This document shows, piece by piece, positions 1 through 2,042 of a DNA stretch of 64,000 nt; position 1 is the first letter of the stretch; the number at the start of each line of letters is the position of its first letter. The notes under the pieces are model-generated. The model did no database searches and was not told the origin of the DNA. It was given only the letters and a program-made list of their open reading frames with translations. A program made the translations under genes and the position numbers. This DNA is from an uncultured Gammaproteobacteria bacterium (GTDB lineage Bacteria > Pseudomonadota > Gammaproteobacteria > Pseudomonadales > Azotimanducaceae), in NCBI GenBank assembly GCA_913050035.1, contig CAJXAC010000002.1, forward strand, positions 1 to 64,000, given 5' to 3'.

Positions 1-139
1 CTCAGGTAGTCTCTGCACCTTCCGGCGGTGTACCGCCGGCTTGGCTCAGGGTTGCCTGCGTTCGATTACTCGTCCGTGAAGGTTTCCCTGAATTCATCCC
101 GTTCATCCCGACCCTTTCGATGTCGGGAGCACCATTTTG
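1..139 (-). ncRNA. Group I self-splicing intron in tRNA-Ile (5' part)
   Basis: The intron starts directly after the CAU anticodon. Reading down from 139: P1 can form between exon CAU and an intron GUG, with the usual U.G wobble at the splice site, extended inward by two pairs. P2 is TCCCGAC/GTCGGGA, capped by a GAAA tetraloop. The P element is AATTCAGGGAAACC (about 91-78) and the Q element is CAACCCTGAGCCAAG (about 56-42), giving a perfect TCAGGG/CCCTGA P4. P6 is a CCGGCGG/CCGCCGG hairpin with a TACA loop. The R element, GCAGAGACTA (about 17-8), is the guanosine-binding P7 strand. P8, the S element, P9 and the 3' splice site lie outside the window. Position and architecture match the ~205-nt Azoarcus tRNA-Ile(CAU) intron. 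No homing endonuclease ORF is visible in the part present. Confidence 0.9.
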
Positions 140-176
140 ATGAGTCCACTGCTCTAACCAACTGAGCTATAGGCCC
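1..176 (-). tRNA. tRNA-Ile(CAU), interrupted and cut by window edge
   Basis: Only the 5' exon (176 down to 140) lies in the window. Read on the minus strand it shows a GGGCCTA acceptor strand, TA, a GCTC/GAGC D-stem with an AGTTGGTTA loop, the 5' anticodon strand GTGGA and a loop ending in CTCAT. The anticodon is therefore CAT. The GACTCAT context resembles the tRNA-Ile2 that carries lysidine and reads AUA; an elongator tRNA-Met cannot be fully excluded without the 3' half. A group I intron follows directly after the anticodon, so this is a split gene and not a broken one. It lies 15 bp downstream of rpoD on the same strand, an order known in Pseudomonas-like genomes, with no terminator visible between them. 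Confidence 0.85.
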
Positions 177-191
177 AAATCATTGCAACGT

Positions 192-2042
192 TTAGGTGTT
201 GCGCCCTTTGCCGCCCTCCGACGTTTCGTCTAAGAAGCTGCGCAGGTGCTCCGAGCGGCTCGGATGCCTGAGCTTGCGTAATGCTTTCGCTTCTATCTGA
301 CGAATCCGTTCGCGGGTGACGTCAAACTGTTTACCCACCTCTTCCAAGGTGTGGTCTGTGTTCATATCGATACCAAAGCGCATTCGCAGCACCTTAGCTT
401 CTCGTGCGGTCAGACCGCCGAGCACATCTTTTGTTGCTTCGCGCAGACCTTCGCCGGTGGCCAGCTCAATAGGCGAACCAATTGTGCTGTCTTCTATGAA
501 GTCACCCAGGTGCGAATCTTCGTCATCGCCAATAGGTGTTTCCATGGAAATAGGCTCTTTAGCGATCTTCAGTACCCGTCGCACTTTGTCTTCGGGCATT
601 TCCATACGATCGCCGAGTTCTTCTGGCGTCGGCTCTCTGCCCATTTCCTGCAGCATTTGCCGGCTGACACGATTGAGCTTGTTAATGGTCTCAATCATAT
701 GCACTGGTATTCGGATTGTGCGCGCCTGGTCTGCGATAGACCGGGTAATGGCTTGGCGAATCCACCATGTGGCATAGGTTGAAAACTTATATCCGCGCCG
801 GTATTCGAATTTATCTACCGCCTTCATCAAGCCGATATTGCCTTCTTGAATCAGGTCTAGGAATTGCAGCCCGCGATTGGTGTATTTCTTCGCGATTGAA
901 ATTACCAAACGCAGGTTCGCCTCAACCATATCTTTTTTCGCGCGCCGGGCTTTCGCTTCACCCAGAGACATGCGTCGATTGATGTCTTTGATCTCGGTAA
1001 TGCTGAGTTCGGTAATCTTGCTCAAGGCTTTGAGCTTTTTCTGCGAACGCGCAATATCGTCGCGCTGATTCTCTAGCGGCGTGGAGAAATCTTTTTTCGC
1101 CTTCACCAGCTTGTTAATCCAAGTGGCGCTGATTTCGTTACCTACGTACTCCTTACGGAACACATCGCGGGGTACGCGTGCACGTCTAACCGCTGCGGTC
1201 ATAATCAGGCGTTCATGTCGGCGCACGATGCCTTGTGCTTCTCGGGCCAGTTCTACCATGTGGTCGAAGTGCTTCGGAACAAGCTTAAAGCAGCAGTACG
1301 CTTCGCTGAGCTTAACCGCTTGGGCTTCGGCCTCTTTGCTTTTAGCGCCCTTTTCTTCGACCAGTTTGTTGTACTTGTTGTACTGACGCTTCAACAACGA
1401 AAAGCGCTTTTTCGCCTCGACCGGATCGGGGCCTTTGTTTTCTTCTTCCTCGTCATCGTCATCCGCCTCTGGCTTTTTAACTCCATCAGCGCCCACCTGT
1501 GTAGCCGCGGGAACGTGATCCGTTGGGTCCAGATATCCCACTAGTAAATCTGCTAATTTGTCTTCTTTAACCACTTCGGCATAGGTTTCCAACAGATACT
1601 CAACTGTGCCCGGGTAGTAGGAAAGTGCGGTAAGTACGTCGCGAATACCTTCTTCAATGCGCTTTGCGATGGCAATTTCGCCCTCGCGGGTCAGCAGTTC
1701 TACCGTACCCATCTCACGCATGTACATGCGCACCGGATCCGTTGTGCGGCCGGCTTCAGTCTCTACTGCGGCCAATGCAGCAGCTGCTTCTTCTGCAGCC
1801 AGTTCGTCTGCTGTGTTCTCTTCGTTGGTGAGCAGGTCATCGGCGTCAGGCGCGGTTTCATACACCGTGATGCCCATGTCATTGATCATACGAATGATGT
1901 CTTCGATCTGCTCAGGGTCAGAAATGTCGTCTGGCAGGTGATCATTCACCTCGCCATAGGTTAAGAATCCTTGTTCTTTACCCTTGGCAATTAATTCTTT
2001 GAGTTTGGACTGCTGATCGGTTGTCGTGATTTGGTTGCTCAT
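192..2042 (-). CDS. rpoD: RNA polymerase primary sigma factor RpoD (sigma-70)
   Basis: This is the housekeeping sigma factor that directs RNA polymerase to -35/-10 promoters. The 616 residues have the full group 1 layout: region 1.1 at the N-terminus, region 1.2 at about 101-133, a non-conserved insert with an acidic run at 193-201, region 2 at about 375-445 (including the [15 protein letters not shown] core-binding and -10-melting stretch), region 3 at about 455-535 and region 4 at about 545-600 with the [19 protein letters not shown] helix-turn-helix for the -35 box. The ATG at 2042 is preceded by an AGAGGG ribosome site. It is the last protein gene of the rpsU-yqeY-dnaG-rpoD block and has an apparent promoter of its own in the 286-bp gap after dnaG. 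Confidence 0.98.

What the first reader, a model, noticed from the sequence alone, without database searches (positions are those of the whole stretch)
1..176. Group I intron splitting tRNA-Ile(CAU) next to rpoD
The sequence shows a tRNA 5' half ending at a CAU anticodon followed at once by group I core elements: P1 CAU/GUG, P2 with a GAAA loop, P/Q pairing TCAGGG/CCCTGA, a P6 hairpin and the GCAGAGACTA R element. The Azoarcus tRNA-Ile(CAU) intron is known to sit at the same place. If this is the only tRNA-Ile2 gene, AUA decoding in the cell depends on self-splicing. The RNA may also be co-transcribed with rpoD, since only 15 bp separate them.
Basis: partly seen in the sequence, partly recalled or inferred. 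Interest (0 to 1): 0.8.

Follow-up and report, generated by a model that had tools for sequence, protein, structure and literature searches.

The report
Group I intron in tRNA-Ile gene
A marine bacterium's gene for the transfer RNA that likely reads the codon AUA is interrupted just after its anticodon by a group I intron, an RNA predicted to cut itself out, and relatives in many other bacteria and some phages carry the same kind of intron, most of those examined with an extra arm, predicted to fold as a hairpin, that the textbook Azoarcus-type version lacks.

Summary
Bases 176-140 (minus strand) are the 5' half of tRNA-Ile(CAU), ending at the anticodon; 139-1 are the 5' part of a group I intron (RF00028, E 5.4e-7, 32.9 bits, under the gathering score of 50 because cut at its 3' end). 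Base 1 is the contig end; the 3' part was not found elsewhere in the draft genome. Three relatives, 97-99% identical over these bases, have the whole intron (80-84 bits). Joining the exons of one gives, 77 of 77 bases, the uninterrupted tRNA of 12 intronless family members. Intron-bearing (44 of 195) and intronless (102 of 195) genomes do not overlap. The kind is known (Azoarcus tRNA-Ile). What seems new is a lineage with a conserved, covarying extra helix, P7.1, between P7 and P3: it prevails in Gammaproteobacteria, whereas introns without it, where class is known, were betaproteobacterial. Introns with such an arm also sit in tRNA genes of MAGs labelled as other phyla and of a Klebsiella jumbo phage. 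Self-splicing is inferred, not shown.

The parts
140..176 (-). first 37 bases of tRNA-Ile(CAU), through the last base of the anticodon CAU (142-140)
   Evidence: sequence; the same 37 bases followed directly by AATC form an uninterrupted tRNA in intronless relatives
1..139 (-). 5' part of a group I intron, cut by the contig end at base 1
   Evidence: RF00028 match 151-1, E 5.4e-7, 32.9 bits, truncated 3'; full-length in G002, G004, G034
130..133 (-). internal guide sequence GGUG, pairing as P1 with exon CAU and intron base 1 (U.G at the splice site)
   Evidence: 276 of 276 cells paired in 69 related introns, no variation
106..128 (-). P2 hairpin with GAAA loop
   Evidence: basal 4 pairs 93.5% paired against 64.2% in shuffles in 69 relatives
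95..101 (-). P3 5' strand CGGGAUG (partner CGUCCCG lies beyond base 1)
   Evidence: 99.4% of cells paired in 69 relatives, hardly variable, so not above shuffles
86..91 (-). P4 5' strand UCAGGG
46..51 (-). P4 3' strand CCCUGA
22..39 (-). P6a hairpin CCGGCGG/CCGCCGG
   Evidence: 99.6% paired against 82.8% in shuffles, 72 double changes in 69 relatives
7..19 (-). conserved GGUGCAGAGACUA; its last five bases GACUA (11-7) are the 5' strand of P7, the guanosine site
   Evidence: P7 345 of 345 cells paired in 69 relatives, invariant
1..6 (-). start of the P7.1 arm: CCUG (6-3) and first two bases of P7.1a
   Evidence: P7.1 pairing types and P7.1a covariation in relatives
192..2042 (-). rpoD, upstream neighbour on the same strand, 15 bp from the tRNA
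   Evidence: NF004208, 856.6 bits

Best explanation
The contig ends inside a tRNA-Ile(CAU) gene downstream of rpoD that is interrupted directly after its anticodon by sequence matching a group I intron, which is predicted to splice itself out and so make what is likely the cell's only tRNA for the codon AUA. Shown by sequence: the 5' boundary, P1 with a U.G pair, P2, P4, P6 and the P7 5' strand in the window; P3', P8, P7', P9, P9.0, the terminal G and the 3' exon in close relatives; exact empty sites in intronless relatives. Inferred: guanosine attacks after the anticodon's U, the freed 5' exon attacks after the terminal G, and the joined tRNA then receives lysidine from TilS, whose gene is present. 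Also inferred: the P7.1 arm, which lies where the P7.1/P7.2 extension of group IA2 introns lies, braces the P3-P7-P8 side of the ribozyme. The lineage is partly inherited with the chromosome, with repeated gain or loss.
For: RF00028 in the window and at 80.5-84.0 bits in the three closest relatives; 13 of 15 chosen loci reach the gathering score. Of 164 loci matching the 5' part (some of them duplicates), 148 gave a readable 3' end and all 148 introns end in G (the regex asked for the exon, not for the G). Exon joining gives the 77-base tRNA of 12 intronless relatives. No genome was seen with both forms: 44 with the intron, 102 without, of 195. Helices covary in 69 introns: P2 base 93, P6a 72, P7.1a 61, P9 101, P9.0 32, P8 12 double changes, each above every one of 200 shuffles in fraction paired. 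P7.1 occurs in six pairing types: CCUG/CAGG, GCGG/CCGC, GUGG/CCAC, CUGG/CCAG, CCCG/CGGG, GGUG/CACC. TilS N-domain at 158.3 bits in the own genome. AUA is 151 of 995 Ile codons in 54 long window ORFs and is in 46 of them. The uninterrupted form is 81.8% identical over 77 bases to genes annotated tRNA-Ile in E. coli (3 of the 5 rows listed).
Against: The own intron is incomplete and the own 3' half was not found. Window score below gathering. No RNA data. P1, P3, P5 base, P6, P7 and, within the 69, P7.1 hardly vary and say nothing by covariation. Neither draft shows any tRNA-Ile at all besides the interrupted one, not even the usual GAU type, so their tRNA lists are incomplete and a second tRNA-Ile2 could be missing. 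That the tRNA is Ile and not Met rests on resemblance: ARAGORN labels the uninterrupted form Met(CAU), as it does the other CAU tRNAs here, and 2 of the 5 best E. coli rows are labelled tRNA-Lys. Shuffles do not allow for relatedness.
Confidence: 0.93

Rival explanations
1. The intron is real but no longer splices alone: it is kept by a host protein or is decayed in this genome, the tRNA being supplied otherwise.
For: Own copy not seen in full; splicing untested; genome 91.67% complete.
Against: The visible 176 bases are 97-99% identical to complete copies, whose catalytic elements are intact. No other tRNA for AUA was seen in G004 and AUA is in common use.
Confidence: 0.05
2. A chimeric or damaged contig end joins a tRNA 5' half to unrelated sequence.
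For: The feature lies at the contig end.
Against: The same arrangement in 43 of 194 other relatives, with rpoD upstream in the same orientation in 103 of the 113 loci that hold an RpoD match.
Confidence: 0.01
3. The intron is removed by a protein, like bulge-helix-bulge tRNA introns of archaea.
For: It sits near the canonical tRNA intron position.
Against: Group I core with P1 to P9, terminal G, RF00028 over the gathering score in relatives.
Confidence: 0.01

Closest known systems
Group I intron of Azoarcus sp. BH72 pre-tRNA-Ile (IC3) and betaproteobacterial relatives without P7.1 (type A here)
   Same: Same gene and the same site after CAU; small, without room for a homing endonuclease; P1 with CAU/GUG; GNRA loops on P2 and P9 (Azoarcus itself recalled and from passages of PMC3984707 and PMC4498298; type A read in 18 distinct introns)
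   Different: Type A runs from P7 straight into the P3 3' strand; the window's type has the P7.1/P7.1a arm there. Type A introns are 202-224 nt, type B 228-372 nt.
Group IA2 introns such as T4 td
   Same: An arm between P7 and P3 (P7.1/P7.2 in td; passages of PMC4498298)
   Different: Gene and host differ; common descent of the arm was not tested.
tRNA-Ile2 introns noted in Acidovorax and Burkholderia by the tRNAscan-SE 2.0 authors (PMC8450103, passages)
   Same: Group I intron in tRNA-Ile2 that makes gene finders miss the tRNA
   Different: That passage names betaproteobacteria; the window's lineage is gammaproteobacterial and has P7.1.
Cyanobacterial and plastid tRNA-Leu(UAA) IC3 introns
   Same: Core sequence around P4-P6 and the P7 5' strand looks closer to the window's than Azoarcus does (recalled, not fetched or tested)
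   Different: Different tRNA; no P7.1 as recalled.

Membership tests
Group I intron | Match to the RF00028 covariance model over its gathering score | tested here: inconclusive
   Window 32.9 bits against 50, truncated; close relatives 80.5-84.0; 13 of 15 loci over the cut-off, L027 and L062 not
Group I intron | P3-P7 pseudoknot core with P4-P6 and P8 | tested here: met
   In 69 relatives: P3 99.4%, P4 100%, P6 100%, P7 100%, P8 98.6% of cells paired; in the window only the 5' strands of P3 and P7 are visible
Group I intron | U.G at the 5' splice site and terminal G of the intron | tested here: met
   P1 276 of 276 cells; 148 of 148 readable 3' ends are G, 16 of 164 loci not readable; the window's own 3' end is not visible
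Group I intron | Guanosine-dependent self-splicing | not testable with these tools
   Needs bench work
tRNA-Ile(CAU) intron of the Azoarcus kind (subgroup IC3) | Same insertion site in tRNA-Ile(CAU) | tested here: met
   CAT|intron|AATC in type A and type B loci
tRNA-Ile(CAU) intron of the Azoarcus kind (subgroup IC3) | No extension between P7 and P3 | tested here: not met
   P7.1/P7.1a arm in the window's type; PMC4498298 (passages) names this extension as what sets td apart from the Azoarcus and Synechococcus ribozymes
Mobile group I intron | Encodes a homing endonuclease | tested here: inconclusive
   The 139 distinct introns with readable ends are 202-372 nt, too short for one; the complete copies of the closest relatives are 262-263 nt; the 3' part of the window's own copy is unseen

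The most novel reading that the evidence does not exclude
The P7.1-bearing introns are a separate, so far unnamed structural subgroup of group I introns specialised on one site, the anticodon loop of tRNA-Ile2, and tRNA-carrying phages ferry them between bacterial phyla; in their hosts every AUA codon is read by a tRNA that a ribozyme makes.
Probability: 0.3. Interest if true: 0.68.

Novelty: new variant of a known kind. Interest (0 to 1): 0.5.

Why it matters
If it splices, an apparently essential, single-copy tRNA depends on a ribozyme in many uncultured gammaproteobacteria, and tRNA finders miss it or mislabel it (ARAGORN: nothing in the window; with introns allowed, tRNA-Gln in 25 and tRNA-Arg in 1 of 30 loci). 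Lineages with and without P7.1 at one identical site make the role of that extension testable. Copies in phage tRNA genes offer a route for spread and stand against a 2014 review's statement that phage introns seen until then all sat in protein-coding genes.

Tried and rejected
Whole-window Rfam at gathering threshold and RF00028 over the own genome found nothing, because the match is cut. Search for a second copy or the 3' half in the own genome: none. A mistyped pattern for intronless genes gave 0 of 195 and means nothing; the right one is. P8 was wrongly indexed (37.0% paired, no better than shuffles) and recounted. L064 (Shewanella), L325 and L327 are chance matches inside other sequence and were left out; L064 is among the 164 loci, unread. 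In alignment A1 (71 rows) I gave L081 wrong coordinates and L066 too long a stretch; both were dropped, leaving 69 rows, chosen from 93 non-redundant type B introns of up to 290 nt. The RpoD tree used 54 of 84 family loci: 26 gave no RpoD match in the stretch held, 4 were too divergent; genomes with neither form resolved are not on it. Plasmids: 7 records, all matching the 37-base exon only. A strictly vertical history was rejected: 9 changes on the RpoD tree (3 forced by well-supported branches; shuffled mean 17.8, 0 of 500 shuffles as low), and intron and RpoD distances correlate only at 0.50 over 67 loci.

Full report
WHAT IS IN THE WINDOW. On the minus strand, bases 176-140 read as the first 37 bases of tRNA-Ile(CAU) and stop at the anticodon; from 139 to 1 follows a group I intron up to its P7 5' strand and the first six bases of a P7.1 arm. 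Rfam's group I model matches 151-1 with E 5.4e-7 but 32.9 bits, under the gathering score of 50, and marks the match as cut at its 3' end. The window is G000:C2:1-64000 of a contig of 84,812 bases, so base 1 is the end of the contig in a draft genome of 120 contigs, 91.67% complete. The upstream gene is rpoD, 2042-192, on the same strand, 15 bp away.

COMPLETE COPIES. The 176 bases match with intron in 44 of 195 genomes, own included, all 44 in the window's family (120 of the 195); diverged introns in the other 75 could be missed. G002 and G004 are 99% and G034 97% identical. In these the intron (262, 262 and 263 nt) runs on through P3', P8, P7' and P9 to ...AATGTG and the tRNA resumes with AATCCATTGGTCCCAGG...CCACCA. 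They score 83.7, 84.0 and 80.5 bits; of 15 loci that I chose for the test, 13 reach the gathering score, L027 (45.8) and L062 (45.5) do not. Joining the exons of G004's copy gives 77 bases identical to the uninterrupted tRNA-Ile(CAU) of 12 loci from 12 intronless family members; 40 of 40 intronless loci fetched with that aim show an unbroken site.

WHICH tRNA, AND IS IT THE ONLY COPY. ARAGORN labels the uninterrupted form Met(CAU), as it labels the other CAU tRNAs here. It is 81.8% identical over 77 bases to genes annotated tRNA-Ile in E. coli in 3 of the 5 rows listed; the other 2, at 83.1%, are labelled tRNA-Lys. The two other CAU tRNAs of G004 and of the own genome look by eye like initiator and elongator Met. 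A pattern for uninterrupted tRNA-Ile(CAU) is found in 102 of 195 genomes, none of them among the 44. 49 genomes show neither by these two tests; of 14 such cases fetched (six in the family) were read as uninterrupted, 6 stayed unresolved. G004 (98% complete, 6% contaminated) has 36 tRNA matches; no tRNA-Ile(CAU) or (UAU) is seen besides the interrupted one, but neither is the GAU type, so the list has gaps. The own genome's 24 matches give the same picture. TilS, which makes lysidine on this tRNA, is present. AUA is 7.95 per 1000 codons in 54 window ORFs of 150 codons or more, taken mechanically, and rpoD itself holds three.

ANATOMY. In 69 introns of the window's type (71 rows aligned, two dropped; 139 distinct introns were held) fraction paired and shuffled mean are: P2 base 93.5/64.2, P6a 99.6/82.8, P7.1a 99.7/87.5, P9 91.8/61.3, P9.0 98.6/79.9, P8 98.6/94.5. 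P1, P3, P4, P5 base, P6, P7 and P7.1 are nearly invariant there and give little or no covariation; P3 is not above its shuffles (99.4 against 99.5). The loop of P9 is GAAA in 67 of 69; that of P2 is a GNRA loop in at least 61 of 69. Of 164 loci with the 5' part, 148 gave a 3' end and all 148 end in G before AATC; the other 16 were cut by contig or locus ends, did not fit my exon pattern, or (L064) were chance.

THE P7.1 ARM. Between P7 and P3 the window's type has CCUG, a covarying hairpin (P7.1a), a bulge of the form U-R-A-U-N-A in 66 of 69, and CAGG. In the 69 CCUG/CAGG is fixed. Over 140 distinct cores that include viral contigs and one phage, but leave out type A by the length asked for, other pairs occur: GCGG/CCGC 5, GUGG/CCAC 3, CUGG/CCAG 2, CCCG/CGGG 1, GGUG/CACC 1; 121 are CCUG/CAGG by the search and 6 of the 7 unclassified ones by eye; L047 has GGAC/GUCC without the bulge. 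Of the 139 distinct introns with readable ends, 119 are of this type (B), 18 lack the arm (A), two have GCGG/CCGC. Of the 18 of type A, 17 are named Betaproteobacteria and one only Proteobacteria; of 69 type B records with a class 68 are Gammaproteobacteria and one is a MAG labelled Actinomycetes, 20 more have no class. The arm is not absent from Betaproteobacteria: Azonexus L066 and Burkholderiales L047 have it. The known comparison is PMC4498298 (passages): the td IA2 ribozyme resembles the Azoarcus and Synechococcus IC3 ribozymes except for P7.1/P7.2 between P7 and P3. The window's type thus seems to join an IC3-like core with an arm at that place. I found no paper that describes this for tRNA introns (open-licence library only; I saw listings, and passages of seven papers).

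SPREAD. In 370 class members drawn evenly, at least 90% complete, 17 (own included) carry the pattern. On a RpoD tree of 54 family members the trait needs 9 changes (3 forced by well-supported branches; 17.8 in shuffles), and the window's own clade of 20 genomes on that tree all carry it. Intron and RpoD distances over 67 loci correlate at 0.50, 500 permutations reach at most 0.13. So the intron looks stable in the window's clade and gained or lost repeatedly elsewhere. An RpoD match lies in 113 of 164 loci (some duplicates), in the same orientation upstream of the tRNA in 103, at 19 to 4,615 bases from the end of the match, and in opposite orientation in 10.

PHAGES. Of 18 viral contigs with the pattern, 16 look tRNA-like with an intron (several are near-copies of each other) and two are chance; of 12 of these 16 tested, 8 reach the RF00028 gathering score. 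Both types occur among them, with and without P7.1. Klebsiella phage Muenster, whose record annotates nothing under the match, has a complete tRNA with CAU anticodon split at the same site by an intron scoring 104.1 bits. PMC3984707 (2014, passages) states that all phage introns seen to date sit in protein-coding genes. Whether phage tRNA introns have been reported since I did not search. That phages carry the introns between hosts is inference.

KNOWN AND NEW. Group I introns in tRNA-Ile2 are known from Azoarcus and were noted in Acidovorax and Burkholderia (PMC8450103, passages); a 2014 review names cyanobacteria and a few alpha- and betaproteobacteria as hosts of bacterial tRNA introns (PMC4033280, passages). 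New here, as far as these calls show: the gammaproteobacterial breadth, the P7.1 arm and its covariation, and phage copies. Function, self-splicing, is inferred throughout.

Noticed in passing
L332 (Klebsiella phage Muenster) 1483-1793: Unannotated tRNA-Ile(CAU)-like gene split by a group I intron of 104.1 bits (1523-1753); phages KP13-7, RCIP0023 and phiKp_21 give the same 70.6% match.
   Followed up: partly
L331 (Acinetobacter phage AM101) 1001-1744: A tRNA-Ile(CAU)-like gene interrupted at the same anticodon site by 666 bp holding an endonuclease gene, with no group I intron at Rfam's gathering score; phage AbTZA1 (L333) has the site empty. An endonuclease aimed at this site would be a possible mover of the introns.
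   Followed up: partly
   Followed up: no
L117, L081, L150, L098: Similar introns in contigs labelled Cytophagales, Opitutia, Fibrobacterales and Actinomycetes; the labels were not checked against neighbouring genes.
   Followed up: no
L163 (G092), L165 (G006), L176 (G114): About 20-40 extra bases between the splice site and the guide sequence, lengthening the loop of P1.
   Followed up: no
L028, L050, L059, L075: An additional variable segment between P9 and the 3' splice site in some introns, in L028 self-complementary.
   Followed up: no
L247-L250 (G117, G046, G100, G078): The RpoD match near the interrupted tRNA is in opposite orientation and only 50-57% identical, unlike other family members.
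   Followed up: no
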